In this document: piece after piece, positions 2,498-17,691 of the stretch | Layout of the letters: each line of letters starts with the position of its first letter | How positions within the stretch are numbered: the stretch's first letter is position 1 | NCBI GenBank assembly: GCA_017472605.1 | Contig: JAFUPV010000046.1 | Coordinates: forward strand, 1-64,000 | DNA from: Lachnospiraceae bacterium | Lineage (GTDB): Bacteria; Bacillota; Clostridia; Lachnospirales; Lachnospiraceae | DNA: 64,000 nt | Direction of reading: 5' to 3' | Notes under the pieces: generated by a model | Databases searched by the model: none | What the model was told of the DNA's origin: nothing | What the model saw: the letters and a program-made list of their open reading frames with translations, nothing else | Made by a program: the position numbers and the translations under genes

Positions 2498-2526
2498 TTG
2501 ACAGAATGATTGGAATCTGCTATTCT
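2498..2526 (+). promoter_or_regulatory. Promoter of the giant SpaA-repeat gene
   Basis: TTGACA (2498-2503), a 17-nt spacer, and TATTCT (2521-2526): perfect -35 and 5/6 -10. It rules out translation starting at the in-frame ATG at 2510, which lies upstream of the transcript start. Confidence 0.85.
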
Positions 2527-2547
2527 GTCGATATCACAGGAAAACAT

Positions 2548-2617
2548 CCTGCCGGTCGGACTTTTTTTGCCGGCAGGAGAAAATGCCAGGCGATTTGAGC
2601 GATCAAATGCCGTTTTT
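2548..2617 (+). promoter_or_regulatory. Structured 5' leader: two hairpins
   Basis: First hairpin: CCTGCCGG (2548-2555) with CCGGCAGG (2570-2577), perfect, with a T7 tract inside the loop. Second: GGC-g-ATTTGA (2589-2598) with TCAAATGCC (2603-2611), loop GCGA, followed by T5 (2613-2617), itself terminator-like. I could not match this leader to a known riboswitch class: the conserved cores of c-di-GMP-I, ykkC and SAM-I are not present. Confidence 0.55.
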
Positions 2618-2625
2618 GTACGTAA

Positions 2626-2661
2626 GAGTAATGAATGGAGGAAATTCATTGCTCTTTTTTT
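2626..2661 (+). terminator. Intrinsic terminator inside the leader (attenuator candidate)
   Basis: GAGTAATGAA (2626-2635) pairs with TTCATTGCTC (2645-2654) with one G-U pair, followed directly by T7 (2655-2661). It lies between the promoter and the coding start of the giant surface-protein gene, so transcription must read through it. Confidence 0.8.
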
Positions 2662-2684
2662 GTGCTCAAAAAGGAGGAATTCCC

Positions 2685-2759
2685 ATGCATCATCATCGTG
2701 CGCCGCCAAAACAGAGAGAATCAGGTCGCAGTATGGAAGGAAAAGAAAGGAAGAAATGA
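2685..2759 (+). CDS. 24-codon upstream reading frame, starts MHHHR, coupled to next gene
   Basis: An ATG 7 nt after a strong AAAGGAGG begins MHHHRAPPKQRESG..., ends ERKK, and stops with a TGA (2757-2759) that overlaps both candidate start codons (ATGATG) of the giant gene. The ribosome site is better than that of the main gene. The overlap makes translational coupling likely. Three consecutive His codons right after Met recall amino-acid leader peptides but fall short of the seven of the enteric his leader. Being translated is inferred, not shown. Confidence 0.55.
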   Translation: MHHHRAPPKQRESGRSMEGKERKK

Positions 2760-5700
2760 TGAATTCCAGATTTAAGAGAAAAAAGCTGAAATCACAGATT
2801 TTAAGCGTTGCAATGACACTGTGCATGGCTCTGCAGTCTCTGAGCGCAACCACTGTCTATGCAGCCGAAATGGAACCGGGGACAGCTGCGCAGGAAGCAG
2901 AAGCCGACATGGCACTGTCGACGGGTGGAATAGAAGAAACGATGCCGGGGAATGAATCGCCGGAGACAAAATCCTGGGAAAATCCGGATGAGAATGGAGA
3001 AGAATCCGTTTCGATGAGCGGACTGTCAGCGACGGAAATGGATGAAGGATTAACAGAAATCGGGACAGAAGAATCCGTTTCGATGAGCGGGCTGTCAGCG
3101 ACGGAAATGGATGAAGGATTAACAGAAATCGGGACAGAAGAATCCGTTTCGATAAGCGGGCTGTCAGAAGAGAAAACAGAGGAAGAATCGACGGCGATGA
3201 ATGAAACTGCGGTGGTGGAATCGGAAGCTGGACTGGAGGAGACAGGAGCAGAAGCAGAAACTCAGATACTTCTGTTTCCTGATAATCCGGCAGCCTGTTT
3301 TGCAGCCGGGGATGAAGGTGCCGTCTATTCGGCAGAAGCGGAAACGTACCGGCCTGGAAGATATGCATGGCGCAGGACATCTATGGAACAGGAGGAAGCG
3401 GTTGCAGTATTCATCAATTCGCTTCTTTCCAGAGTTGGAAAAGGGTACACACTAAACAGCCCGGATAATGTGAATTACTATGCCTGCAATACACTGATCT
3501 CGGAGGCCTTTGAGGATCTCGGAATTGATATCCGCAAAATCCTCGGCGGAACCGGCTGGGCAAATACAGCTGACTGGAAAGCGATGCTTGACACGCATCA
3601 GGTTGGCGATGAGATTACCTTCAGCGGTACCAACGAGATTACGTTTGAAATCATTGCGAAAGATACAACAATCCTGGGGAATCCGGATGCTTTTCAGGAA
3701 CCGGGAACGATTATTCTGTGGATTGAGCCGGGAAAAACGACTGGTCACCTTGGTGTTTCGCTGGGATATTTTGAGCGGGTAACAGATGGAATGGATCCGG
3801 CCTGGAACGGAGCTGCAATTCAGGAAAAGACGCTGGATTCAATTCGGGAATTTCTGATTGCGTCCTATGGCGCAGACCGAAACCTGATGTACGGAAACAA
3901 TCAGATCTATGGCCTTGCAAATGTACAGTTTTCATCTGAGTACATCGGAACGGATGTGGGAATTCTTGGGGATGCCTATGGAAATATTCTGCAGTACTCC
4001 GGCCCCTACAATGGAATTTTCAAGGTTGACGCATTGAATACAACCTATGGAGTCAGTGTCAATAATTTTGTAAACGGAAAAGAGGGAAGCACCGTTGCCT
4101 ATGTGCTGCAGCCGACAGAGCCGAAAACGGCAGAAGGATATGCATATTTTACAAAATATGGAGAAGCACTTGGAACACCGATAAAAGGGGCAGCGTTTAC
4201 CGTTTACGATTCCAGGGAACATGCAGAAGCGCATGATGGTGTGACGGGTGTTGTAGGAACAATCACAACGGATGCGGATGGAAAGGCGGCTGCCTGGCTG
4301 TCGACAAACCATGATTATTACGCAGTTGAATCCGTCACGCCGGAAGGGTTGAAACCGGAGCCGGATAAAATCTGGCATATCTGGCTGGATCCTTACGTGG
4401 AAGCGCCGACAATGAATATTGGCGTTCCAAATTCGGAAATTCAATCGGGAACAGTAAAAGTAATTAAGAAGGATGCAGTAACCGGTCAGGAGCTGTCCGG
4501 TGCAGAGTTTACACTGTATGAATGGAGCGCTGCAGCTGGTAATTATACCGAAGTTGCAAAACTGACTGATCAGGAGGATGGTACATACACTCTTTTTGGC
4601 TACACACCACGTGCAACCGGTGCGTATTACGAAACGGACAAGCTGATTTATACCCAGGACAATAGCGGAAAGTTCAAGGTTGCTGAGACCGGTCTTCCGG
4701 CTGGTCATACCGGTACCTGGGAGCGTGAGTTTGTACTGGATGAAGATGGAAAAACATTTGTGTACACAGCGGAAAATACCCCATGGTATGGAACCGTCTC
4801 TTTGACGAAACTGGATGCGGATACCAGAGAGGAACTGAAAGGTGCGACATTCATTCTGCAGGAGTGGAGCAGTACAGAGAATAATTATGAAACGGTCGGA
4901 ACGTTTACCGATCATGGCGATGGAACCTATGATCTGAATCAGTATACGATCCGCAGCAGCCAGACCGAGGTAACCGATGGAAAGATCTGGTATACACCGG
5001 ATAATCAGGGAAGATTTCGGATCGCAGAGTCAAAGGCACCGGAGAACTATATTGGCGGATGGTCAACCACATTTGTCCTGACAGAAGACCGTCAGGTATT
5101 CTATTACGATGTGGAAAATGTTCTTGGCAGTGAAGAACTGATGATTCTGAAAAAGGATGACCGCGGAACGGTGCTTGCCGATGCAGCCTTTGGCGTGTAC
5201 ACAACAAGAGAGGAGGCGGAAGCAGCAAGCAATGAAAACCGGGGAAATCCGGCTGCGATTCTCGTGACGGGAGCGGATGGAACCGCAAGTGCGAAGCTTT
5301 CGATTGGTTCGTATTATGTGAAAGAGCTGATCGCCCCGGAAAACTATAAGCTGGATGAAACGGTTTACGGCCCGTTTTCCGTAAGCAGCAATCCGGAACA
5401 GAACGGTATTCATGAGATTGTGAATTATCCGGATAATGGTACGGTGGAACTGACAAAGACCGGTCTGAACACAGACGGCCTGCTCCATGGCCTGGAAGGA
5501 GCCGTTTTTGCAGCATATACAACGAAGGAAGCCGCAGAAGCAGGAACCATTGGCAACACGGATACAGCAGCGTATGTCTGGACGACGGATTCTAATGGTA
5601 AGGCCAAAGGAACGGTGGAACCGGGCAGTTACTGGATCAAAGAGATCCAGGCTCCGGAGGGCTATGAACTGGATGTTACTGTCTATGGAGGTGTCAGTGG

Positions 5701-8700
5701 TTATGCGGTAAGTGCAGTGGATGGATCCGTTACTGTCCCGGTGAAGGAGAACACTCCGCTGACCGGTAAAGTAAGGATCCGAAAGGTCGGAGCAAATGAC
5801 CAGGGACAGGAAGTTCCGCTTGCCGGAGCTGTCTTTGCTGTTTATGACAGGAAGGACGCAGCCGAAGCAGGAAACGAGGAAAACACGGAGACCGCCGCAG
5901 CCGTGATTGTGACCGGCGCAGATGGAACCGCGGTGACAGGAGAACTGAAGGCCGGTCATTACTGGGTGAAAGAGATCGCAGCTCCGGATCATTACCAGCT
6001 GGATGAGACTGTTTATGGCGGAAGCAACGGGTTCGTGGTTGGATGGACGACACCGGTTCGTAACGTCTCCGTGGATCCCAATGTTCCTGCAGGCGGTATG
6101 GTTGAGGTGAGCAAACAGGGGGCATATCCGGATGGAACCGTGTCCGGACTGGCAGGTGCCATGTTTGCCGTTTACAGCAGCAGGGATGCGGCAGAGGCAG
6201 GAAACGCAGAGAATACGGAGACTGCAGCTGCAGTGATAACAACGGACAGGGATGGAAAGGCGAAGACAGCTGAACTGGAAGCCGGATATTACTGGGTGAA
6301 GGAGATTGCTGCACCTGCCGGATATGTACTGGATGAGACCGTCTATGGCGGTCCGGACGGATTTAAGACCGGCTGGGATGTGCCGGTGCGGGCTGTGGCT
6401 GCCAATGACAATGTGCCGATGACCGGAAAACTGTCACTGGAAAAGGATGGCTATACGTTCAACGGTGAGGCTGCTGCACTGGCGGACGCGGAATTTGCGG
6501 TGTACGCAAGCAAGGCAGACGCGGAAGCAGCGGAACATGCAGTAACCGTCCTGAAAACAGGTGCGGATGGAACGTCAGAAACGCAGGAGCTGGCAGCTGG
6601 CTATTACTGGATCCGTGAGACGAAAGCCCCGGAAGGTTATTATCTGGACGATACGGTTTATGGAGGAGATGACGGATTTGTGGTAGGCTGGACCTTCGAT
6701 CAGGTGGCCGTATCCGTCAACACAAACCTTCCGAAGGAAGGAAAACTGACGCTGACCAAGGAAGGAAAAAATGAATCCGGCGAACTGGGAGTCCTTGCCG
6801 GTGCCGTGTTTGGCATCTACAAATCCAGAGAAGATGCAGAGAACGGAACACTGGAAAATACGGCTAATGTATACCGGATGCTGACAGACAGCGACGGTAC
6901 AGCGGTATCGGAACTGCTTGCCTGTGATGAATACTATGTGAAGGAACTGCAGGCACCGGATGGTTATGAATTAAATGAAACGGTATACGGACCGCTTGAA
7001 GTCGGTATCCGGAATGATCTGGTGGAAGTGCCGGTGGAGGAGAATATCCCGAAGATGGGCATCCTGCGTCTGGAAAAAGTGGATTCCCTGACCGGAAATC
7101 TGCTGGATGGAGCTGTTTATACGGTCTATACCGATGCCAACGGCAGAAAAGAAGCGGGAACCATTGCGGTAATGGACGGAACCGGAAGCATCGAACTGCC
7201 CTATGATGTGTACTGGGTGAAAGAAACAGCGGTTCCATATGGCTACCAGCTGGATGAGACCGTTTATGGACCGTACACCGTTGGCGGACCAGAGGGAGAT
7301 GTGGATGTCCCTCCGATTCGGGAAGAGGAACAGAGGATTGAAATACGCCTGGAGAAGCGGGATGCAGAAACAGGAGAAGCGCCACAGGGAGATGCGACCC
7401 TTGCCGGTGCTGTGTTTGAGCTGCGTGCCGCAGAGGCGATTGTTCATCCGGATGGAGCAACCGGAGTTGTTTATGAAGCCGGTGAGCTGGTTGCGACTCT
7501 GGTAACGGATGAAAAAGGACATGCTTCCGTTTCAACGGATGAGGACGGAAACTGGCTGCACTGCGGTCAGTACGAGCTGGTTGAGGTGAAAGCTCCGGCT
7601 GGTTATGTGCTGGATCCGACGCCCCACGCAGTGGACGCGTCCTATGACAGGACACAGGTAACGGCTGACCTGGTATCCCATGACGCGGGAATCGTTTGGA
7701 ATCAGATCATCCGGCAGCCGGTGGTTCTTCACAAGTTCGCGGATGAGAAACAGGCACCGGCCAATGAGCTTCCGGGTGTAGGTTTTACGTTCTACCTGCT
7801 GTCTGATGTCTGCAGAGCCAACGGAGTGGACAGTTATTATGACCTGCCGATGAACGAAAAAGGCGTTGATGTCACAAAGCTGGAGCTGGACGGTCTGGCT
7901 GTCAGGATCGGTGGAAACGGGGAAACGGAACTGTTCTCAGATATGAATGGTAAGGTGCGTACCGTACCGCTTGTTTACGGAGAATATCTGGTGGTGGAGA
8001 CCACGCCGAATCCCTATTACCATGCCAGCGCGCCGTTTACCGTGACCGTTCCAACGGTACAGACAACGGATGAAAACGGCAATGAGGTGGAGATCCATAC
8101 CATTGATTACCAGCCGACCCTTCCGTTTGAGGTTTCCGTGATCAACTGGGCGGCGAGGGCATATCTGCAGATTGAGAAGATCGACGCGGAGACAGGAAAG
8201 CCGGTACGGAATGCAGCGGCACAGTTCCAGATCCTGAATGCCCAGGGAAAGCCGGTGGTTCAGCATTACTGGGATGGAAAGGAGGAGGTGGAAACGGATC
8301 GTTTCACCACCAATGCGGAGGGAATCCTGCGTACCTGGCAGACCCTGAAAGCAGGAGAGTATACATTGGTTGAGGTGAATGCGCCGGTTGGCTATATCAA
8401 GGGGGATCCGATGCCATTCAGCATCAAAGCCAGCGGTGTCACGTTCGAGCTGGAGGGAGAGACTTATCCGGCCAAGATCAGTTACACCGCAGATGGGGAG
8501 CCGGTTGCTGCGCTTGCGGTTAAGAACACAGCGATCACACTGGAGATTTCCAAGTCCGATATCACAACCGGTGAAGAGATCGCTGGTGCTGTCCTGAGCA
8601 TTTATAAGCAGAAGGAGGATGGAACAAAGGGTGATATTGCCACTTATCAGTCCGAAGAAGGGATTGAGACAGAAGCAATCTGGACAACCAATGGAACAAA

Positions 8701-10630
8701 GACCGTGATCAAGTGTCTTCCGGCTGGAAACTATATCCTGGAAGAAGTATCTGCACCGACCGGGCAGGGATATGTGAAGGCGGAAGCGGTTCCATTTACG
8801 ATTGAGGAAACGGGAGACATTCAGCGTGTGGAAATGAAGGACGATCATACAAAGATTCACATTTCCAAGACAGATATCGCAACCGGAGCAGATGTGCCGG
8901 GAGCAAAACTGCAGATCCTGAATGCCAGCGGAGACGTATTTGACGAGTGGACAACAGATGGAAGCGAGCATGTGATCGAGTACATGCCGGTAGGTGAATA
9001 CACGTTAGTTGAAATCCAGGCTCCAACGGAGGACGGTTACGTTCATGCAGAGGACGTAAAGTTCGAAGTAAAAGAGACAGGAGAAATTCAGACCGTGGAA
9101 ATGAAGGATGATCATACGAAGGTTCACATTTCCAAGACCGATATTACAACTGGAGCAGATGTACCGGGAGCAAAGCTGCAGATTCTGGATGCCAGCGGAG
9201 AAGTATTCGACGAGTGGATAACAGATGGAAGCGAGCATGTGATCGAGTACATGCCGGTGGGTGAGTATACGCTGGTGGAGATCCAGGCTCCGACAAAGGA
9301 CGGATATGTTCATGCAGAGGACGTGAAGTTCGAAGTGAAGGAGACCGGAGAGATCCAGACTGTGGAAATGAAGGATGATCATACGAAAGTAGTGATTTCC
9401 AAGAAAGATATTACAAATGGAGAAGAGCTGCCCGGAGCAACGCTTCAGATCATCAATGAAACAGGTAACATCGTTGAGGAATGGGTATCGGAAGAAGAAC
9501 CGCATCTGGTTGAATATCTTCCGGTTGGTTCGTATATTCTTCGCGAGATCACTGCCCCGGAGGGATATGCATCGGCAGTGGATGTCTCCTTTACGGTGAC
9601 AGAAACAGGCGGGATCCAGCCGGTTGAAATGGTGGACGATATCACAAAGGTATCGATCCGCAAGACAGATATTGTTACCGGAGAGGACATCATCGGTGCA
9701 ACACTGACGCTGACCGATTCCATGGGAACGGTTATTGATGAATGGGTGACAGATGGAACGGAGCATTATATAGAGAAACTTCCGGTTGGAACCTATACGC
9801 TTCGTGAGACCATTGCACCGTCCGGATATGTTCTGGCTTCTGATATTTCATTTTCCGTGACAAGTACACTGGAAATCCAGAAGGTTGTCATGACTGATGA
9901 TTACACGAAAGTGGAAATCAGTAAGAAGGACATTGTGACCGGAACGGAAATTGCCGGAGCAACCCTGACAATTACGGATTCAGAGGGAAAACAAATTGCA
10001 CAGTGGATCACGGATGGAACCGTGCACCGAATTGACCGTCTGGCAGCAGGAACCTATACGCTGACCGAAACGACCGCACCGTATGAGCAGGGATACACGA
10101 CTGCAGAAAGCGTGGAGTTTACCGTAGCAGCAACGGGAGAAATCAAGAAGGTTGTTATGGAAGACAGTAAGACAACAACAGAGATCAGAAAGACAGATAT
10201 CCTGACCGGAGAGAACCTGGCCGGAGCGGTTCTGATTCTGACAGAAAAGGAATCCGGAAGAGAGATTGAACGCTGGGTATCCAATGAGGAAGCACATACC
10301 ATCACCGGTCTGGTTCCCGGACGGACTTACATTCTGAGTGAGGCGGCGGCACCGGATGGATATGAGATTGCAGCTCCTGTGGAATTTACGGTGGAAGATA
10401 CCGATAAAGTCCAGATCGTTGTCATGAAGGATGTACCGACTCAGGGAAAAATTGTCAGTACAACAGAAGAGGAAACAGAAGAGGATACGTCGGAAGCAGA
10501 GGAGCGGGAGGAAGTAATCCTTGGAATTGAAGATGACAGCTGGCTTCATGGAATACTTCTGCTTGGAATCGGCACGACAATTCTGTTGCTTGCTGTTTAC
10601 CTGGCAGTGGAACGCAAGAGCGGGGAATAA
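2759..10630 (+). CDS. Giant surface protein: C40/CHAP-like head plus about 20 SpaA/Cna-B repeats
   Basis: 2,623 residues from the ATG at 2759 (the ATG at 2756 is only 2 nt from AGGAAG). A signal peptide ends near TTVYAAE (about 35-38). An acidic linker with 23-residue repeats (ESVSMSGLSATEMDEG) follows. About 205-400 resembles an NlpC/P60 or CHAP cysteine peptidase: Cys243 in YYACNTL and His330 in TTGHLGV. From about 460 come roughly 20 SpaA/Cna-B beta-sandwich repeats of 75-95 residues, each with a start like V-K-xD-xxTG-x-L-x-GA-x-F and an end like ExxAPxGY; these normally hold Lys-Asn isopeptide bonds. The C-terminus is an acidic stretch, one membrane segment (HGILLLGIGTTILLL...) and a basic tail, without a recognisable LPxTG before it. 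No sortase gene is nearby. Likely an adhesin or stalk; target unknown. Confidence 0.85.
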   Translation: MNSRFKRKKLKSQILSVAMTLCMALQSLSATTVYAAEMEPGTAAQEAEADMALSTGGIEETMPGNESPETKSWENPDENGEESVSMSGLSATEMDEGLTEIGTEESVSMSGLSATEMDEGLTEIGTEESVSISGLSEEKTEEESTAMNETAVVESEAGLEETGAEAETQILLFPDNPAACFAAGDEGAVYSAEAETYRPGRYAWRRTSMEQEEAVAVFINSLLSRVGKGYTLNSPDNVNYYACNTLISEAFEDLGIDIRKILGGTGWANTADWKAMLDTHQVGDEITFSGTNEITFEIIAKDTTILGNPDAFQEPGTIILWIEPGKTTGHLGVSLGYFERVTDGMDPAWNGAAIQEKTLDSIREFLIASYGADRNLMYGNNQIYGLANVQFSSEYIGTDVGILGDAYGNILQYSGPYNGIFKVDALNTTYGVSVNNFVNGKEGSTVAYVLQPTEPKTAEGYAYFTKYGEALGTPIKGAAFTVYDSREHAEAHDGVTGVVGTITTDADGKAAAWLSTNHDYYAVESVTPEGLKPEPDKIWHIWLDPYVEAPTMNIGVPNSEIQSGTVKVIKKDAVTGQELSGAEFTLYEWSAAAGNYTEVAKLTDQEDGTYTLFGYTPRATGAYYETDKLIYTQDNSGKFKVAETGLPAGHTGTWEREFVLDEDGKTFVYTAENTPWYGTVSLTKLDADTREELKGATFILQEWSSTENNYETVGTFTDHGDGTYDLNQYTIRSSQTEVTDGKIWYTPDNQGRFRIAESKAPENYIGGWSTTFVLTEDRQVFYYDVENVLGSEELMILKKDDRGTVLADAAFGVYTTREEAEAASNENRGNPAAILVTGADGTASAKLSIGSYYVKELIAPENYKLDETVYGPFSVSSNPEQNGIHEIVNYPDNGTVELTKTGLNTDGLLHGLEGAVFAAYTTKEAAEAGTIGNTDTAAYVWTTDSNGKAKGTVEPGSYWIKEIQAPEGYELDVTVYGGVSGYAVSAVDGSVTVPVKENTPLTGKVRIRKVGANDQGQEVPLAGAVFAVYDRKDAAEAGNEENTETAAAVIVTGADGTAVTGELKAGHYWVKEIAAPDHYQLDETVYGGSNGFVVGWTTPVRNVSVDPNVPAGGMVEVSKQGAYPDGTVSGLAGAMFAVYSSRDAAEAGNAENTETAAAVITTDRDGKAKTAELEAGYYWVKEIAAPAGYVLDETVYGGPDGFKTGWDVPVRAVAANDNVPMTGKLSLEKDGYTFNGEAAALADAEFAVYASKADAEAAEHAVTVLKTGADGTSETQELAAGYYWIRETKAPEGYYLDDTVYGGDDGFVVGWTFDQVAVSVNTNLPKEGKLTLTKEGKNESGELGVLAGAVFGIYKSREDAENGTLENTANVYRMLTDSDGTAVSELLACDEYYVKELQAPDGYELNETVYGPLEVGIRNDLVEVPVEENIPKMGILRLEKVDSLTGNLLDGAVYTVYTDANGRKEAGTIAVMDGTGSIELPYDVYWVKETAVPYGYQLDETVYGPYTVGGPEGDVDVPPIREEEQRIEIRLEKRDAETGEAPQGDATLAGAVFELRAAEAIVHPDGATGVVYEAGELVATLVTDEKGHASVSTDEDGNWLHCGQYELVEVKAPAGYVLDPTPHAVDASYDRTQVTADLVSHDAGIVWNQIIRQPVVLHKFADEKQAPANELPGVGFTFYLLSDVCRANGVDSYYDLPMNEKGVDVTKLELDGLAVRIGGNGETELFSDMNGKVRTVPLVYGEYLVVETTPNPYYHASAPFTVTVPTVQTTDENGNEVEIHTIDYQPTLPFEVSVINWAARAYLQIEKIDAETGKPVRNAAAQFQILNAQGKPVVQHYWDGKEEVETDRFTTNAEGILRTWQTLKAGEYTLVEVNAPVGYIKGDPMPFSIKASGVTFELEGETYPAKISYTADGEPVAALAVKNTAITLEISKSDITTGEEIAGAVLSIYKQKEDGTKGDIATYQSEEGIETEAIWTTNGTKTVIKCLPAGNYILEEVSAPTGQGYVKAEAVPFTIEETGDIQRVEMKDDHTKIHISKTDIATGADVPGAKLQILNASGDVFDEWTTDGSEHVIEYMPVGEYTLVEIQAPTEDGYVHAEDVKFEVKETGEIQTVEMKDDHTKVHISKTDITTGADVPGAKLQILDASGEVFDEWITDGSEHVIEYMPVGEYTLVEIQAPTKDGYVHAEDVKFEVKETGEIQTVEMKDDHTKVVISKKDITNGEELPGATLQIINETGNIVEEWVSEEEPHLVEYLPVGSYILREITAPEGYASAVDVSFTVTETGGIQPVEMVDDITKVSIRKTDIVTGEDIIGATLTLTDSMGTVIDEWVTDGTEHYIEKLPVGTYTLRETIAPSGYVLASDISFSVTSTLEIQKVVMTDDYTKVEISKKDIVTGTEIAGATLTITDSEGKQIAQWITDGTVHRIDRLAAGTYTLTETTAPYEQGYTTAESVEFTVAATGEIKKVVMEDSKTTTEIRKTDILTGENLAGAVLILTEKESGREIERWVSNEEAHTITGLVPGRTYILSEAAAPDGYEIAAPVEFTVEDTDKVQIVVMKDVPTQGKIVSTTEEETEEDTSEAEEREEVILGIEDDSWLHGILLLGIGTTILLLAVYLAVERKSGE
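3001..3169 (+). repeat. 69-bp tandem repeat within the giant gene
   Basis: Copies at 3001-3069 and 3070-3138 are almost identical and a third partial copy runs to about 3169. The period is 23 codons, so the frame is kept. It encodes the acidic linker after the signal peptide. Confidence 0.85.
8840..9385 (+). repeat. Near-identical SpaA repeat pair
   Basis: Two neighbouring SpaA repeats (both with KTDI.TGADVPGAKLQIL and YMPVGEYTLVEIQAP) are nearly identical at protein and DNA level, unlike the rest of the array. This points to a recent duplication by recombination between repeats. Confidence 0.75.
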
Positions 10631-10712: not shown

Positions 10713-10728
10713 GTTAGAAGAGACTAAC
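10713..10728 (+). promoter_or_regulatory. Operator-like palindrome 1 (GTTAG-N6-CTAAC)
   Basis: GTTAG (10713-10717), AAGAGA, CTAAC (10724-10728), at the expected transcript start of P1. The same segment can fold in RNA: TTAGAAGAGAC (10714-10724) is a perfect complement of GTCTCTTCTAA (10733-10743). Sites with TTAG...CTAA arms are typical of DtxR/IdeR-type metal repressors; assignment to that family is inference. Confidence 0.6.
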
Positions 10729-10756: not shown

Positions 10757-10773
10757 GGTTAGATTAAACTAAC
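10757..10773 (+). promoter_or_regulatory. Operator-like palindrome 2
   Basis: GGTTAGATTAAACTAAC, a 17-mer that recurs unchanged at 17670-17686 in front of the DUF2325 gene. GTTAG and CTAAC are perfect inverted arms around ATTAAA. Confidence 0.6.
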
Positions 10774-10996: not shown

Positions 10997-11146
10997 TTCT
11001 TTTCATGGATAATGATATGATATTCCTGTAGAGTCACGTGAATTCTGCAGTCGAAACAGTGCTGATTGACAGCGGTATGTTTTGCTTGTTTCTATAACGC
11101 TGTTTGCAGATGAGTCATGGACAAAAACTGCGGGAGGAATCAGAAA

Positions 11147-11366
11147 ATGGTTAGAAAAATCGTCAGAGATCCCATGTTTCTGGCGCAAAAGTCGGAGCTG
11201 GCCGGACCTGCGGACCAGCAGGTTGTAACCGATCTTCTGGATACGCTTCGCGTCAATCTGGATCATTGTGTCGGACTTGCCGCAAACATGATTGGTGTCA
11301 GAAAGCAGATCATTGCAGTAAGTGTTGGAGCATGAGATTGATCATTGTAATGGAATTGTCATTTAG
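11147..11366 (+). pseudogene. def: Peptide deformylase remnant with internal deletion
   Basis: Starting at ATG 11147 (GGGAGG 10 nt upstream) the frame reads MVRKIVRDPMFLAQKS...DHCVGLAANMIGVRKQIIAVSVGA and stops at 11335. This is the N-terminal third of a clostridial peptide deformylase including motif I (GLAANMIG). Immediately after, in the +1 frame, the sequence reads LEHEIDHCNGIVI and stops at 11364-11366: this is the normal deformylase C-terminus with the metal-binding HExxH motif. The middle part with motif II (EGCLS) and about 60-65 codons is absent. So the gene suffered an out-of-frame internal deletion and cannot make an active enzyme. A functional def must exist elsewhere, since formyl removal is essential. 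Confidence 0.85.
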
Positions 11367-11857: not shown

Positions 11858-14800
11858 TTGTTGAATAAGACCAGATTCCTGGATGAATTCAGGCATGAGT
11901 TATGCGCTGCGAAAGAGAAAAGACTTCTCTTACTGGATGCCGGTAAGGAACTTTTGGAGAAATTTGACAGGGATGAGTGTCTTGCAAAAGATAATCTGGA
12001 AGAGATTTGTTCGATTGGCGAGCAGATTTGCAGGATGCAGAAAAGGATGGAAGAGATCTGGCCGTTTTTGTGCGGGAAGGAAAAAATGCCGTCGTCAATG
12101 AATGCCATTGAAAATCGGTGCGTGTGGCTGGAGGCGCAGATGGAGCTGATTCCTTTTTTCTGCTCACTGACTTCAGATGACATGGGAATACAGAGGATGC
12201 TGGAAGAATCCGGCAGAAATCTGGAGAAGCTGGGGGAAATGAGTGATGATCTGTCTGCTGCGATGGAGCCTTTTCGTACCTTTCGCAGTCTTCTCGAAGA
12301 AAAAGAGAACAGAAAACGGTTTCAGCTTGCGCGCAGCCTGAGAGATTTTTTTGATCCGGAACTTCTGCTTGCTGTCTGTTTGGGAATTGTTGAGGCAAAA
12401 GAGAAGGAAATTGGTTTGGAATCTGCAGCAGAACCGGTGCGCGAAATTGCCGCCGCAAAAGTAACGGTACAAGATTCGGAGAAAGGCCGGCAAGGTACAG
12501 ATACAGTGGAGTGTGAGGCGTGGACAGGTACCGATGCAGAATATGCCGGACTGAAAGCGCCGGAGGCGGAGAGTCATGAGCCGGAAGTGCTGGAAACGGA
12601 GAGTCATGAGTCGAAAGCGCCGGAGGCGAAGAGTCATGAGCCGGAAGTGCCGGAGGCGGAGAGTCATGAGCCGGAAACTCTGGAAGCGGAGAGTCATGAG
12701 CCGAAAGCGCCGGAAACAGAGTACGGGGAGCCGGGAGTGGCAGGGACAGCGTGTGATAAGGAAGTCTGCGAAGCAGGGTATCTCGTGGATGGGGAACGGA
12801 CTAAGAGAATGGAAACGGTTATCGTATGCCGGAATTTGATTCAGGAAAATAAGATTTACTGTGCGTTGGCTTATGCAAAGGCACAGGCAATTGCAGATTC
12901 GCAGATAGAGCCGTACTATAAAGAACTGGCCTATGCGGTGAACGATCCTATGGCGGAATGTACCTATAATTCAGATACTATCTTTCTGATTTATTTCAAT
13001 GACGATGAGCAGGATGAATATCTCACTGTGGCAGCCATGCTCCGGAACTATTTTTATAATCAGTGCAGCTTTGACTATCAGATGCTGCAGCTGATGGAGT
13101 CGGCGTCTTCCTTCCGACTGATGGAAAATAGCCTGCTTCGCTCCGTGATGTATGATCTGCTGAACTTTAAGCGGAAATATCACTGTGGAATTGACCGCTA
13201 TGCGGATTACAGAGAAAAAGAGCGCAGGGATTGGGAAAAACGACTGGATGAGGTAAAGCTGGAAGCAGGAAAGTATTACAGCACCTATGTTCATGGAATG
13301 ATTAAAGAAACTGCGTCCCATAAGCGGGTGATTGAAACAAGAAAGATGATTTTTCATGCGAATGGAGAACTCAGTACATATCTTCAGGGTGTCCAGAACG
13401 ATGAGAGAAGTCTGCTTCCGGAGCTGAAACAGTTTCTAATGAATGATTATGTAAAAGAGCAGGGTGAAATCTGCGCCGAGAACATTGATAACAGGAAATT
13501 GAATGCGGTTCTTGATTCGTTTTGGGGGAAAGCCGGAAATCAGATGAATGTGATCCGGCATTCCTCAGATCTGATGAGCCATCTGAGAAACAACCTGCTT
13601 GCAGCTCTCAGAAAAACGGTTGCCGTTTTGTGCAGCTATGTCCATCTGCTGGATTCCTGTATGGAGGAAGAAGAGGGAACGGCACGCAGTGAATACAGCA
13701 AACTGAAAAAGACGCTGTTGGAGCGGATGGAAGTTCTGATCTGCGAGATGGAAGAGAAAGACGGAAGAGAGGCAGGGAGAGAAGCAGGGGAAACAGGAAC
13801 TGTGATTCTGGCAGGAGCGCTTCGGGAACTGAAAGCCAGACTGGATGGAAGCTGGAATGAAAATTCCAGCCGCTGGTTCTATCTGGATTTTCTGAAAGGG
13901 CAGGAGGTTCTTCTGGATGAGGATAATTTGCCAATGATGAATTGTGTGGAGGAACTGCCTCAGCTGGATATCAGCAGACGGATACTTGCTCATGCAGAAG
14001 CAGACGGAGCGGAAATCACATGGGAAGAGTGTCTGGATCGAATTTTCAATGGATATGATAATTATGGATCAGCAGCCCGCGTGCTGGAATATCTCTGTCA
14101 ACAGTGTCCGAACCGGGCAGACGAACTGCGCAGCAGGTATAATCTGGAGGAAGCAATTGAGTTTCCTCAGAATGACGCACTGGCAAGAAAGAATGGGTTT
14201 ATTGCGGATCTGGAACTGGCTCAGAGCTATGGACAGATTGATTATACAGACAGGGACAGAAAAGAAGCGATGGTCCAGATTGCCGACCGCTGGTATCAAT
14301 GGGCGGTGGAAACGAAGAATTTTCAGTTCTTCTACCGGATTCTGGAGGGATTTTCTCATAAAGTGAAAGAAGAATCCAGGATTCACGGAAAACGCCTGAC
14401 CCACAGCCTGCAGATGTTTCAGCAGGAACATCCTGAGTTGACGGAACGGGAAAAAGAGGCGGCAAAACTGGTGAAGGAACGGATTGAATCGCAAAACTAT
14501 TCAGCTGCAGAGGACTTGCTGAACCGGATTTTGTCGAAGGATCTGGAGAACAGTCAGGAAATCATGGAGACGGATTATCTGAACCTTTTTCTTCAGGAAT
14601 ATGAAACCAATTATTTCAATGTTTCTCAGGCAGGAATTTCTCTGAGAACACAGATTTTATGTAAAGGAAAAAATAAAGACCGAAAAGCAGCGGAACGTCT
14701 GGCAGACAGCTGGCTGTCCAATGGTGCAAGGGCAGGTGAAGAGAAAATTCAGGTGCTGCTGATAAATCTTGGATTTGCGGTGGAACAGGTTCAGGAACAG

Positions 14801-16372
14801 GAAAAAATCTGTGATAAGATAGAAAACTATCAGGTATATCTGAAAAAGCCGGTGAATGGAAGAAAGAATAACTATGTGCATCCAATTGCTGCTTTCGGAT
14901 CCGGAGCAGAGCAGGATGGGTTTCGTGTTGTCTGCCTCCATGGAAGAACAGACGCCAGAAGATTGATGGATACGTTTCGGGAGATCGGAAATGCCAGACA
15001 CACGCTGGTTCTCCTGGATTACTCGCTGACGATTGATGAAAGACAGATTCTGGCCAGAGGACTGAAGCTGGAGCTGTCCGGCAGAATCTTCGCAGTCATC
15101 GACCGTGTTGTCATGGCCTTTCTGATCAATCATGGAATGGAAACGTCTGTGAACCGGATTCTAATGGCTGTTATTATGCCATACGCGGCTTATCAGCCCT
15201 ACATCAGCGAGTCTGCGGTAGTCATGCCTCAGGAGATGTTCATGGGACGAAGACGGGAACTGGAAACGATCGAAGCCTGGGATGGAGTGAATATTGTCTA
15301 TGGCGGGCGTCAGCTTGGAAAATCAGCCCTTCTGCGCATGGCATGGAAGGATGTAGATCGGAATGAAAACGGAGACCGTGCTGTTTTGGTGGACATAAAA
15401 GGGTTGAATGACAGAAAAGCTGCGGAAAAAATTTCCTTTGAACTGGCGGAGGCAGGAATCCTTTCAGAAAATGAAATCAGTGAGGACTGGTACCAGCTGA
15501 CGAGACAGCTGAAGCGAAGATTGAGAAGCGGAGAGCCGGCAATTCCTTACTTACTTCTGCTTCTGGATGAAGCAGATACCTTTCTTGAAAGCTGCGAGGC
15601 GGTGAATTATGCGCCTTTCGATGCCTTGAAAGATGTTCAGTCCATTGGAAGCGGACGATTCAAGTTTGTGATAGCCGGTCTTCGCAATGTTGTGCGGTTC
15701 AAGCGAAAAACCGCTTTGAAGGAAAACAGTGTTCTGACACATATGAGATCGCTGACTGTGAAACCATTCTGTGCTGCGGAAGCAAGAACTCTTCTGGAGG
15801 AGCCGCTCTCGTACCTTGGTTTTCGCTTTCCGAAAAACCGGGAAACCGATGCGCTGATCTCAACAATTTTCAGCGCAGCCAACTATTTTCCTGGGCTGAT
15901 CCAGATGTACTGTGAAAAGCTTCTGGAAACCGTGATGAAGGATTATGCCGGATATTCAGCAAAGGACACGCCTCCCTATGTGGTTGGTGAGGAGCAGATT
16001 AAGAAGGTGCTTGCACAACAGGAAATCCAGCAGCAGATAAGGGAGAAGTTTTTCATCACATTAAAAGTAGATAACGATGATTTCTACTATATCATTGCTC
16101 TGATCATGGCATTCCGTTATCATGACGATGACCGGAATTATGGCGTGTCTTCACCGGAAGATATTATTCAGACAGCCAGAGACTACGGAATTGAAAAAAT
16201 CGGTCAGATGGAGACGGAGACGGTTGCGGCATTGATGGAAGAGATGTGTGAACTGAATCTTCTCTGGTCAGCGGGAAACGGAGGCTATCGCTTTGCACGT
16301 CACAGTTTTTGTCAGATGATGGGAGATTCAACCCAGATTGACAAAGAACTGGTGAATTATATGGGGGAATGA
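11858..16372 (+). CDS. Large STAND/AAA-type ATPase, probable conflict-system core
   Basis: 1,504 residues from a TTG start (11858; a second TTG follows) 5 nt after AAAGGAGAGG. No signal peptide or membrane segment. Order: helical N-terminus (1-190); a hydrophilic region of six 10-residue ESHEPE repeats (about 234-293); a long helical region (about 300-1000); an alpha/beta segment ending in LVLLDYSLT...GRIFAVIDRVV (about 1040-1090); then the ATPase core with FMGRRRELETIE just before Walker A GGRQLGKSAL (Lys1155), Walker B LLLLLDEAD (Asp1237, Glu1238), a sensor-like VIAGLRNVVRFKR, and a winged-helix-like C-terminus (MCELNLLWSAGNGGYRF). The GRxxEL-before-P-loop layout is typical of STAND/AAA_16 enzymes. 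The next gene, 1 nt away, carries HEPN. Together they suggest a sensing ATPase with an RNase partner; this role is inferred. Confidence 0.75.
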   Translation: MLNKTRFLDEFRHELCAAKEKRLLLLDAGKELLEKFDRDECLAKDNLEEICSIGEQICRMQKRMEEIWPFLCGKEKMPSSMNAIENRCVWLEAQMELIPFFCSLTSDDMGIQRMLEESGRNLEKLGEMSDDLSAAMEPFRTFRSLLEEKENRKRFQLARSLRDFFDPELLLAVCLGIVEAKEKEIGLESAAEPVREIAAAKVTVQDSEKGRQGTDTVECEAWTGTDAEYAGLKAPEAESHEPEVLETESHESKAPEAKSHEPEVPEAESHEPETLEAESHEPKAPETEYGEPGVAGTACDKEVCEAGYLVDGERTKRMETVIVCRNLIQENKIYCALAYAKAQAIADSQIEPYYKELAYAVNDPMAECTYNSDTIFLIYFNDDEQDEYLTVAAMLRNYFYNQCSFDYQMLQLMESASSFRLMENSLLRSVMYDLLNFKRKYHCGIDRYADYREKERRDWEKRLDEVKLEAGKYYSTYVHGMIKETASHKRVIETRKMIFHANGELSTYLQGVQNDERSLLPELKQFLMNDYVKEQGEICAENIDNRKLNAVLDSFWGKAGNQMNVIRHSSDLMSHLRNNLLAALRKTVAVLCSYVHLLDSCMEEEEGTARSEYSKLKKTLLERMEVLICEMEEKDGREAGREAGETGTVILAGALRELKARLDGSWNENSSRWFYLDFLKGQEVLLDEDNLPMMNCVEELPQLDISRRILAHAEADGAEITWEECLDRIFNGYDNYGSAARVLEYLCQQCPNRADELRSRYNLEEAIEFPQNDALARKNGFIADLELAQSYGQIDYTDRDRKEAMVQIADRWYQWAVETKNFQFFYRILEGFSHKVKEESRIHGKRLTHSLQMFQQEHPELTEREKEAAKLVKERIESQNYSAAEDLLNRILSKDLENSQEIMETDYLNLFLQEYETNYFNVSQAGISLRTQILCKGKNKDRKAAERLADSWLSNGARAGEEKIQVLLINLGFAVEQVQEQEKICDKIENYQVYLKKPVNGRKNNYVHPIAAFGSGAEQDGFRVVCLHGRTDARRLMDTFREIGNARHTLVLLDYSLTIDERQILARGLKLELSGRIFAVIDRVVMAFLINHGMETSVNRILMAVIMPYAAYQPYISESAVVMPQEMFMGRRRELETIEAWDGVNIVYGGRQLGKSALLRMAWKDVDRNENGDRAVLVDIKGLNDRKAAEKISFELAEAGILSENEISEDWYQLTRQLKRRLRSGEPAIPYLLLLLDEADTFLESCEAVNYAPFDALKDVQSIGSGRFKFVIAGLRNVVRFKRKTALKENSVLTHMRSLTVKPFCAAEARTLLEEPLSYLGFRFPKNRETDALISTIFSAANYFPGLIQMYCEKLLETVMKDYAGYSAKDTPPYVVGEEQIKKVLAQQEIQQQIREKFFITLKVDNDDFYYIIALIMAFRYHDDDRNYGVSSPEDIIQTARDYGIEKIGQMETETVAALMEEMCELNLLWSAGNGGYRFARHSFCQMMGDSTQIDKELVNYMGE
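12557..12736 (+). repeat. Six 30-bp coding repeats in the ATPase gene
   Basis: Six consecutive 30-bp units (12557-12586 and onward), each encoding a PEAESHEPEV-like decapeptide. The last unit is the most diverged. They form a charged linker and create a repetitive open frame on the opposite strand that is only a shadow. Confidence 0.85.
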
Positions 16373-16373
16373 G

Positions 16374-17450
16374 ATGGACAGTATATGGTGGAATCAGATT
16401 TCAAATGCAAATCGCTTTATCCGTGAGGTGATCTCTGCTGCGCTTACAGCGGGCAGTCTCATTCTGGTACTGCCGCCCCGGACGCCCTGGTACCAGTCCA
16501 TGTATGAGCGGATTAAAAATGGGCTGCGTGAGCTGGATGCAGCGAATTCCTTTGAACGGATCCCGTGCCCGCAGGAAGAAATTGGAAGATACTTTCTGGA
16601 CCATTACTGTACGCGGGAGGAAATCAATCGATATCGAAAAGGAAAAACCTATGCGGAATTTCTGGGAGAATCGGAACAAAATCTTCTGCATAACAGGTAT
16701 ATCTGGGTTTCGGATATCCCAAAAGAAAAGGGCAGTGAATGGATCGGATTTTTGACCGTATACCAGGATTCCTGCAGAAGGAATGGGCTGCGCCCCGGTG
16801 TTTTTATTCTTGAAACAGAGCAGGAAACGTTGTTTCAGAAGCGAAAGAACATTCATTTCTTTGTTCTGGAACAATATTTGACACCCTATGACAAGTTTGC
16901 TTTCTGCACGCTTGCCGCATCGAAAACCTTCTGCAAGGAAAACCTGAAACAGTATCTGGCTGAACTTGTTTCCGGAATCTGCTCGGCAGATGCGGAACTC
17001 TGCGCTCTTTGCATGAAACATGGCAGTGCATTTCTGGAAAATCCGGAAATGACGATTGAGAAACTTTGCAGCATGGAAAAAAGAAGTGATGGGAGCCGGT
17101 TTCATTCAGAGGAAATTCGAAAGGAAATCGATGCTGCGATCTGGGAGGTACAGATTAAGCTGCTGTTTCCGATTATTGAACGGTATCGGCGAAATTTTAT
17201 TCTTCGCCATGTCACAGAAATTGAGCAGGTTCTTCCCTACACCAATTCGATGAATGAAAGAGTGAATGATCCGATGGAAGTTGAGATTGGTATGCTGTGT
17301 TTTCTCTCCCAGAGCGGACAGGTGGAGACAAGCCAGAGAGAAGCGCAGAAGCTGGCAATCTTCAGAGAAGCAAGAAATAAGCTGGCTCATGTGTATTGTC
17401 TGAATCTGGAGGATGTGGAACAGATGCTGATTATTGGAAATAAGTATTGA
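16374..17450 (+). CDS. HEPN-domain protein paired with the STAND ATPase
   Basis: 358 residues. ATG lies 1 nt after the ATPase stop, with GGGGGAATGAG serving as ribosome site inside the upstream gene, so the two are coupled. The C-terminal helical part contains FREARNKLAHVYCL: Arg334, Asn335 and His339 form the RNxxxH signature of HEPN RNases. The N-terminal 200 residues look like a Rossmann or degenerate P-loop fold (SLILVLPPRTPW; YIWVSDIPKEKG; PGVFILETEQE) without a usable Walker A; this is a guess from pattern. HEPN domains in defence systems usually cut RNA or tRNA after activation. The pairing with a STAND ATPase fits a sensor-effector arrangement. I do not recognise the family as a named system. 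Confidence 0.68.
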   Translation: MDSIWWNQISNANRFIREVISAALTAGSLILVLPPRTPWYQSMYERIKNGLRELDAANSFERIPCPQEEIGRYFLDHYCTREEINRYRKGKTYAEFLGESEQNLLHNRYIWVSDIPKEKGSEWIGFLTVYQDSCRRNGLRPGVFILETEQETLFQKRKNIHFFVLEQYLTPYDKFAFCTLAASKTFCKENLKQYLAELVSGICSADAELCALCMKHGSAFLENPEMTIEKLCSMEKRSDGSRFHSEEIRKEIDAAIWEVQIKLLFPIIERYRRNFILRHVTEIEQVLPYTNSMNERVNDPMEVEIGMLCFLSQSGQVETSQREAQKLAIFREARNKLAHVYCLNLEDVEQMLIIGNKY

Positions 17451-17550: not shown

Positions 17551-17570
17551 TGGTTAGGAAAAACTAACCA
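17551..17570 (+). promoter_or_regulatory. Operator-like palindrome 3
   Basis: TGGTTAG (17551-17557), GAAAAA, CTAACCA (17564-17570): perfect 7-bp arms at the expected start of transcription from P2. Confidence 0.7.
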
Positions 17571-17664: not shown

Positions 17665-17691
17665 ACATGGGTTAGATTAAACTAACCATGT
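17665..17691 (+). promoter_or_regulatory. Operator-like palindrome 4
   Basis: Contains the same 17-mer as palindrome 2 (17670-17686). With one bulged G the arms extend to ACATGG(G)TTAG and CTAACCATGT. The part ACATGGG is also complementary to CCCATGT (17644-17650) in the terminator stem, so alternative RNA folds are possible. Confidence 0.6.

What the first reader, a model, noticed from the sequence alone, without database searches (positions are those of the whole stretch)
11858..17450. Candidate undescribed two-gene conflict system: STAND/AAA ATPase plus HEPN protein
Seen: a 1,504-residue protein with Walker A (Lys1155), Walker B (Asp1237-Glu1238) preceded by a GRRRELE segment, and, 1 nt later, a 358-residue protein with RNxxxH (Arg334, His339). 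Known: STAND ATPases and HEPN RNases are recurrent parts of bacterial immunity, in which the ATPase senses and HEPN cuts RNA. Inference: this pair is a sensor-effector unit. I cannot match it to a named system: the ATPase's long helical region and repeat linker and the HEPN protein's unusual N-terminal half are not features of the types I know.
Basis: partly seen in the sequence, partly recalled or inferred. Interest (0 to 1): 0.78.

Follow-up and report, generated by a model that had tools for sequence, protein, structure and literature searches.

The report
Mobile ATPase plus HEPN RNase pair
Two neighbouring genes, found side by side in many gut and soil bacteria, encode a giant ATP-binding protein and a small protein that looks like an RNA cutter; together they probably form a switch that shuts a cell down when it is attacked, but nobody has tested this.

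Summary
Observation confirmed. A 1504-aa ATPase (11858-16372) is followed 1 nt later by a 358-aa protein (16374-17450) with a HEPN RNxxxH motif. Neither has a significant Pfam, PADLOC, NCBIfam or PDB match. They are a widespread unit: 77 of 80 relatives kept from a genome scan have the partner directly downstream (the other 3 stop at a contig edge), as do 10 of 10 further same-phylum loci (one interrupted) and 8 of 16 plasmid loci examined. R334 and H339 are invariant in 64 aligned partners. Both genes are under purifying selection, co-inherited (Mantel r 0.83), taxonomically scattered, and without conserved neighbours. The partner's N-terminal half is predicted AAA-like without Walker motifs. 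Relatives swap modules: pPIWI-RE or a sigma-70 factor before the ATPase, a PNK-like domain after HEPN. Best reading: an NTP-switched sensor plus RNase-effector conflict module. Closest known: the predicted nSTAND2 two-gene operon (Kaur et al. 2021), an inactive STAND fused to GT4 or HEPN; family identity was not testable. A crude defence-island control showed no enrichment, and no function is tested. Verdict: new variant of a known, untested kind.

The parts
11858..16372 (+). Large ATPase, 1504 aa (TTG start at 11858 or 11861)
   Evidence: relatives
11858..12802 (+). Fast-evolving N-terminal region, residues 1-315, with an acidic repeat linker at about 230-285; most relatives are longer here
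   Evidence: block identity to nine relatives 5-26% (two blocks of one relative with 10 or fewer aligned positions left out) against 18-69% for residues 316-1504; lengths
12803..14497 (+). Conserved middle region, residues 316-880, fold not modelled (helical by eye)
   Evidence: 26-49% identity in three blocks to eight relatives, 18-26% to the most distant one, L031
14858..15232 (+). Conserved region before the ATPase, residues 1001-1125, fold unidentified
   Evidence: 41-69% identity to nine relatives; within the part shared with plasmid relatives
15245..16369 (+). AAA/STAND-like ATPase module, residues 1130-1504: Walker A K1155, Walker B D1237-E1238, N1342-G1346 NYFPG motif, candidate Arg finger R1280
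   Evidence: invariant in 10 sequences; K1155, D1237, E1238 and P1345 also invariant in 43, where R1280 is not among the columns at 90% or more
16374..17450 (+). Partner, 358 aa: pseudo-AAA domain plus HEPN
16374..17075 (+). Pseudo-AAA (inactive-STAND-like) domain, residues 1-234: five strands at 28-32, 59-64, 108-113, 143-148, 160-164, then helices; no Walker A and no conserved Walker B acid
   Evidence: AlphaFold2 model, pLDDT 90.6, pTM 0.81; fold named from strand order, since no fold search was possible
17118..17438 (+). HEPN-like helical region, residues 249-355, with motif R334-N335-x-x-x-H339
   Evidence: model; invariance; sub-threshold HEPN_Swt1 matches on 3 of 9 partners scanned singly, not on this one

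Best explanation
This is a mobile two-gene conflict module. The large protein is an NTP-dependent switch: its fast-evolving N-terminal part and conserved middle region would sense an invader-derived signal, and ATP binding at the P-loop would drive assembly. The small protein docks through its inactive AAA-like domain and is the effector: when copies are brought together on the assembled ATPase, their HEPN domains form RNase sites (Arg334, His339) that cut cellular RNA and stop growth before the invader multiplies. Shown: the pair, its motifs, co-inheritance, purifying selection, patchy spread. Predicted: an AAA-like fold without Walker motifs joined to a helical HEPN-like domain. Inferred: ATP hydrolysis, complex formation, RNase activity, RNA target, trigger and defence role.
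For: Also in 10 of 10 further same-phylum loci, one interrupted by a stop. No solo partner: 8 of 398 phylum genomes matched its profile, all beside the ATPase. 64 of 70 measured pairs lie within -45 to +12 nt, 25 with a 4-nt overlap. R and H invariant in 64 of 64 partners and in 32 of 32 of a wider set. Mantel r 0.83 over the 40 loci common to two alignments, 0 of 2000 permutations as high. Order labels scattered on the tree: 15 changes, least possible 5, shuffled mean 17.9. No neighbour cluster in more than 7 of 79 loci. Found in 10 of 397 family genomes and in neither congener searched. Predicted pseudo-AAA plus helical domain. Fusion of a relative to the known conflict module pPIWI-RE. Published prediction of the same layout.
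Against: PADLOC families near the pair (58; 149 of 200 neighbour genes scanned) are no more than in random stretches of relatives' genomes (62; 138 genes). No hit in 50,697 phage records, and none in one viral-contig scan with the single window protein. The HEPN assignment rests on motif, helices and sub-threshold scores on relatives; the window partner has no HEPN_Swt1 match, and that model also gives sub-threshold matches in 4 of 14 control genomes. In 8 of 16 plasmid loci examined no HEPN partner was found, so the ATPase can do without it. R1280 is not conserved at 90% in the 43-row alignment. Profile comparison found no similarity between the partner and the ATPase (probability 0.2%).
Confidence: 0.67

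Rival explanations
1. Toxin-antitoxin-like addiction pair: the HEPN protein is a toxin held off by the large ATPase, and the pair is kept because loss is costly; any anti-phage effect is secondary.
For: Strict adjacency with frequent 4-nt overlap; HEPN toxins are known from HEPN/MNT pairs (starts of abstracts in the listing); scattered distribution; plasmid carriage of relatives.
Against: The large gene comes first and usually encodes 1462-2209 aa, far larger than antitoxins that I know of (recalled), with N-termini that in distant relatives carry pPIWI-RE or a sigma factor; 8 of 16 plasmid relatives show the ATPase without the HEPN partner.
Confidence: 0.15
2. Cellular RNA-processing or regulatory switch, not immunity: the ATPase directs RNA cleavage or transcription in response to a metabolic or stress cue.
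For: One relative has a complete sigma-70 factor at its N-terminus; two relatives have an AAA_33 (PNK-like) domain after HEPN and a third a sub-threshold one, reminiscent of the Las1-Grc3 nuclease-kinase (start of abstract, listing); no defence-island enrichment.
Against: Patchy presence, absent from both congeners searched, no conserved neighbours, fusion of a relative to pPIWI-RE.
Confidence: 0.14
3. A detached branch of BREX-related (DUF499, HEPN-fused) systems, using inactive STAND and ORC/Cdc6-type ATPases.
For: BREX papers describe inactive STAND proteins (BrxB, BrxF) and HEPN fused to DUF499 ATPases (passages of PMC12839542, and PMC3710099).
Against: No DUF499 or PglZ model appears among the Pfam matches of either window protein up to E 10; no neighbour cluster spans more than 7 of 79 loci, so no methyltransferase, helicase or PglZ gene is a constant companion.
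Confidence: 0.04

Closest known systems
nSTAND2 two-gene operon (Kaur et al. 2021, eLife, PMC8195603; a prediction; section 15 read in full, other passages)
   Same: Mobile two-gene operon; one protein with an intact NTPase, the other with an NTPase-like domain whose binding motifs have eroded, fused to an effector that is often a HEPN RNase.
   Different: The section gives no accession numbers and supplements could not be read, so sequence kinship was not tested. GT4-fused partners were not seen here, though they were not searched for systematically. No profile link between our two proteins was found. pPIWI-RE or sigma-70 N-termini and HEPN-AAA_33 partners are not mentioned in that section.
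HEPN superfamily, Swt1-like branch (PF18731; PMC3710099 passages)
   Same: C-terminal helical region with RNxxxH. Sub-threshold HEPN_Swt1 matches on 3 of 9 partners scanned singly (L022, L150, L156) and, genome-wide, on the partners of G437 (the same gene as L150), G756 and G698 among 18 genomes.
   Different: All scores on partners are below the curated cut-off; the window protein has none, and 4 of 14 control genomes also give sub-threshold matches.
pPIWI-RE systems (PMC3702460; abstract and passages)
   Same: A Bradyrhizobium relative of the ATPase carries the X, MID and RNaseH domains of pPIWI-RE at its N-terminus, with a sub-threshold pPIWI_RE_Z match in the gene before it.
   Different: The passages describe pPIWI-RE alone or with a REase and a DinG helicase; the words ATPase and HEPN do not occur in the main text. 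The window protein has no such domain.
BREX and BREX-related systems (PMC12839542; abstract, outline and passages)
   Same: Theme of an inactive STAND beside an active AAA+ ATPase; HEPN as auxiliary RNase.
   Different: No methyltransferase, PglZ or helicase gene recurs beside the pair; no DUF499 or PglZ match in Pfam.
MADS mad8 ATPase (PADLOC)
   Same: Weak local match around the P-loop (E 0.0035, residues 1146-1226).
   Different: Local and weak; no constant companion gene.

Membership tests
nSTAND2 two-gene system | Two adjacent genes, mobile, no fixed context | tested here: met
   adjacency; scattered spread and no fixed neighbours (consistent with mobility, not proof)
nSTAND2 two-gene system | One NTPase intact, the other with eroded NTP-binding motifs | tested here: met
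   Walker A and B invariant in 43 ATPases; partner predicted AAA-like without them; no P-loop in the N-terminal half of 13 distant partners
nSTAND2 two-gene system | Inactive NTPase fused to GT4 or HEPN effector | tested here: met
   HEPN motif; GT4 not seen
nSTAND2 two-gene system | Conserved arginine finger in both proteins | tested here: inconclusive
   R1280 invariant in 10 ATPases but not at 90% or more in 43; no candidate identified in the partner
nSTAND2 two-gene system | Sequence kinship with nSTAND2, S29/Dap3 and RNA12 NTPases | not testable with these tools
   no reference sequences in hand; supplements not readable; fold search switched off
HEPN superfamily | Rx4-6H catalytic motif in a helical bundle | tested here: met
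   the bundle is from a prediction and was not compared with solved HEPN folds
HEPN superfamily | Significant profile match to a HEPN family | tested here: inconclusive
   HEPN_Swt1 E 0.009-0.15 on 3 of 9 partners, below cut-off; none on P0002
HEPN superfamily | RNase activity | not tested
   needs biochemistry
STAND NTPases | Significant match to a STAND or AAA family | tested here: inconclusive
   P0001: ATPase_2 E 0.067. AAA_22 over its cut-off in six distant relatives (L017, L019, L020, L022, L147, L156; best 2.8e-9); nSTAND1 7e-5 in L147, below cut-off
BREX or BREX-related system | BrxC/DUF499 ATPase with methyltransferase, helicase or PglZ | tested here: not met
MADS | mad8 with the other mad genes | tested here: not met
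   only a weak P-loop match; no recurring companion; mad3 models match 3 of 149 neighbours and 2 of 138 controls

The most novel reading that the evidence does not exclude
The ATPase is a general chassis. Its N-terminus accepts different recognition modules (guide-binding pPIWI-RE, a whole sigma-70 factor, TPRs, fast-evolving regions), and the inactive-AAA-HEPN partner, sometimes with a PNK-like kinase that would turn cut ends into 5'-phosphates, is a shared RNase output. Argonaute-like guided recognition and promoter recognition would then feed one RNA-cutting switch, a class of immune receptor not yet tested.
Probability: 0.3. Interest if true: 0.82.

Novelty: new variant of a known kind. 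Interest (0 to 1): 0.57.

Why it matters
If true, a large set of unannotated giant ATPases in gut Bacillota and on plasmids of several phyla becomes one testable immune family with a defined effector, conserved catalytic residues and swappable N-terminal modules. The pPIWI-RE and sigma-70 fusions would show how guided or promoter-type recognition can be wired to an RNase. It would also give an experimental entry to the predicted two-NTPase (active plus inactive) conflict operons.

Tried and rejected
Family and PDB searches of the window proteins gave nothing significant. A genome-contig scan with the partner alone found no relative; aligned relatives of the ATPase were needed. The 98 nearest genomes contain only the own copy. 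Phage records and one viral-contig scan gave no relative. No empty site could be defined, because the flanks are not conserved in the two congeners. GC content of the pair is like that of the first 40 kb of the window. Rows dropped before counts: G192 and G219, whose matches cover only the low-complexity linker region; 15 of 26 phylum hits, short P-loop matches; the Sinorhizobium hits, a fragment of which one record was looked at. Alignments took chosen rows: A3 64 of 68 complete partners, A4 43 of 76 ATPase cores, A6 149 of 200 neighbour genes. Defence-island enrichment was considered and not supported. BREX and MADS membership were rejected; a TA reading was kept as a rival. CoCoNuTs (start of abstract only) were set aside without testing.
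Full report
What is in the sequence. Neither matches Pfam, PADLOC, NCBIfam or PDB significantly. The best scores are ATPase_2 E 0.067 and mad8 E 0.0035 for the ATPase and, for the partner, nothing HEPN-like. Profile searches of the PDB also failed.

It is a real unit. In the 98 nearest genomes only the own copy exists, and the two congeners lack it. Among 397 genomes of the family 12 gave a match; two of these (G192, G219) cover only the low-complexity linker, leaving the own copy and nine relatives. All nine carry a P0002 homologue directly downstream. The first ORF pass found the partner in 71 of 80. A six-frame check found it in 6 more, two of them cut by the contig end; the other 3 (L074, L077, L102) stop at or within about 200 bases of a contig edge. 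In a draw of 398 phylum genomes 26 matched the ATPase profile; 11 are long matches including the own copy, the other 15 short P-loop matches. The 10 other long-match loci (one from the same class, nine from the same phylum only) were fetched and all 10 have an adjoining partner, some with weak scores. One, L155, has the partner interrupted by a stop and only a 917-aa ATPase frame. The partner profile alone hit 8 of 398 genomes, all beside the ATPase, so no solo partner was seen. Of 70 measured pairs, 64 lie within -45 to +12 nt and 25 overlap by 4 nt.

Conservation. R334 and H339 are two of only seven invariant positions in 64 partners (of 68 complete ones in hand) with 32% mean column identity. 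They are also invariant in 32 of 32 of a wider set that includes Bacillota, Rhodothermota, Pseudomonadota and Actinomycetota. In the ATPase, the Walker A core, Walker B and R1280 are invariant in 10 sequences; Walker A and B, but not R1280, stay so in 43. dN/dS is 0.03-0.15 for the HEPN gene (5 of 14 tried pairs computable, the rest saturated) and 0.016-0.12 for the ATPase core (6 of 13). Residues 1-315 of the ATPase are poorly conserved (5-26% identity in blocks, leaving out two blocks of one relative with 10 or fewer aligned positions), while 316-1504 are conserved (18-69%). The window copy (1504 aa), L040 (1462) and L072 (1514) are short forms; most complete relatives have 1728-2209 aa, while L069 (793 aa) and L082 (split frame) look partial or broken. 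N-terminal regions of 71 members matched only TPR families in Pfam at 1e-4, and none in the window copy.

Fold. AlphaFold2 of the partner on 10 sequences gave pLDDT 90.6 and pTM 0.81. Five strands alternate with helices in the order of an AAA core, with no P-loop and no conserved Walker B acid, then a helical lid, then a helical region 249-355 with R334 in helix 321-338 and H339 just after it. HEPN_Swt1 gave sub-threshold scores on 3 of 9 partners scanned singly (E 0.009-0.15). In three of 18 genomes searched with PF18731 a sub-threshold match falls on the partner gene (G437, G756, G698), none in the own genome; the only match over the cut-off lies elsewhere in G741, and 4 of 14 control genomes also give sub-threshold matches. 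hhalign found no similarity between partner and ATPase (probability 0.2%).

Mobility and context. Distances of ATPase and partner correlate (Mantel r 0.83 over the 40 loci common to both alignments, 0 of 2000 permutations as high). Order labels need 15 changes on the ATPase tree of 43 rows (least possible 5, shuffled mean 17.9, as low in 9 of 200), consistent with transfer but not proof. Among 473 neighbour genes the largest similarity cluster spans 7 loci; nearest neighbours include housekeeping genes such as methionyl-tRNA synthetase. PADLOC on 149 of 200 nearest neighbours matched 58 families at 1e-15, the 25 shown including DpdF, Cas10, Cas5_IIId, Csn2 and PsyrT; 138 control genes from 11 random stretches of seven relatives' genomes matched 62, 19 of the 25 shown being DNA methyltransferase models. 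Families, not genes, are counted, so this is a blunt test, and it gives no enrichment.

Modularity. tblastn in plasmids gave 26 and 27 records. Of 16 distinct loci examined, 8 have a HEPN partner: Salinibacter, Bradyrhizobium, Methylocystis, Agrobacterium, Thiodictyon, S. fungicidicus, Azospirillum, Microvirga. In the other 8 the profiles found none: Brasilonema, S. xanthophaeus, S. cattleyicolor, Euzebya, Cupriavidus, Bosea, Burkholderia, Streptomyces NBC_01546. The Bradyrhizobium ATPase begins with pPIWI_RE X, MID and RNaseH domains (E 1.9e-7, 6.9e-10, 2.8e-22); the Azospirillum and Microvirga ATPases are annotated with the RNaseH domain. The Brasilonema ATPase begins with a complete sigma-70 factor, regions 1.2 to 4 (E 9e-11 to 6e-25). 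Bradyrhizobium and Azospirillum partners add an AAA_33 domain after HEPN (E 3.2e-11, 7.4e-15; that AAA_33 includes PNK-like kinases is recalled), Agrobacterium a sub-threshold one. In Cupriavidus the next gene is DrmE-like.

How it most likely works. The ATPase is the switch and probably the sensor; the pseudo-AAA half docks the effector; HEPN copies brought together cut RNA. HEPN RNases commonly act as dimers with a composite site (recalled), so ATP-driven oligomerisation is a plausible trigger. Only anatomy, conservation and inheritance are shown; activity, trigger, target and defence role are inferred.

Compared with what is known. The closest match is nSTAND2 of Kaur et al. 2021 (section 15 of PMC8195603 read in full): a mobile two-gene operon, both NTPases, one eroded and fused to GT4 or HEPN. 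The layout is the same; kinship of the families was not testable. In one library search the name nSTAND2 appeared only in that paper among the 20 rows listed of 1,132. Searches for HEPN with STAND, pPIWI-RE, inactive STAND and polynucleotide kinase showed no paper on this pair in the rows listed; most subscription papers are not held. BREX-related systems share the theme but not the genes (passages of PMC12839542); the MoxR-vWA iSTAND systems of PMC7159879 (passages) have an inactive STAND but a different core. On re-checking I lowered the best explanation from 0.68 to 0.67, because R1280 is not conserved in the larger alignment and the HEPN_Swt1 control also rings, and raised the regulatory rival from 0.13 to 0.14.

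Noticed in passing
window 10713-10728, 10758-10773, 17553-17568, 17671-17686: GTTAGN5ACTAAC occurs exactly four times in the 3.68-Mb genome as held, all on the + strand of this contig, two on each side of the gene pair; the reversed control pattern occurs once on each strand. It looks like a DtxR-type metal box (recalled), or could mark the cassette's ends; not found in the 80 relatives' loci.
   Followed up: partly
L018:5789-12655 (Brasilonema plasmid pBOCT2): A complete sigma-70 factor fused to the N-terminus of the ATPase in one annotated ORF of 2289 aa.
   Followed up: partly
L019:3284-14239, L160:2549-13989, L179:1282-13082: ATPase with RNaseH N-terminus (pPIWI-RE domains Pfam-tested in L019 only) followed by a HEPN-type partner annotated as AAA family ATPase (AAA_33 tested in L019 and L160).
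   Followed up: partly
L161:8538-11336 (Cupriavidus plasmid): A DrmE-like protein (DISARM, PF24957 E 1.5e-12) directly follows the ATPase where others have the HEPN partner.
   Followed up: no
L022 (Agrobacterium plasmid pTiCFBP4996): A WYL-domain gene precedes the ATPase-HEPN pair; after the pair come a hypothetical gene, a ThiF-family gene and a patatin-like phospholipase gene, which looks like a defence cluster.
   Followed up: no
L158:8562-11246 (Euzebya plasmid): An 895-aa protein with weak TPR matches follows the ATPase where others have the HEPN partner.
   Followed up: no
window 11140-11340: A short fragment that by eye reads like the start of a peptide deformylase, upstream of the pair; possibly a remnant of an insertion.
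   Followed up: no
window 2510-10630: A 2706-aa repeat-rich surface protein (SpaA or Cna-B like by eye) just upstream.
   Followed up: no
L155 (G768:C16): The relative's partner gene is interrupted by an in-frame stop near the start of the HEPN part, and its ATPase frame is only 917 aa.
   Followed up: no
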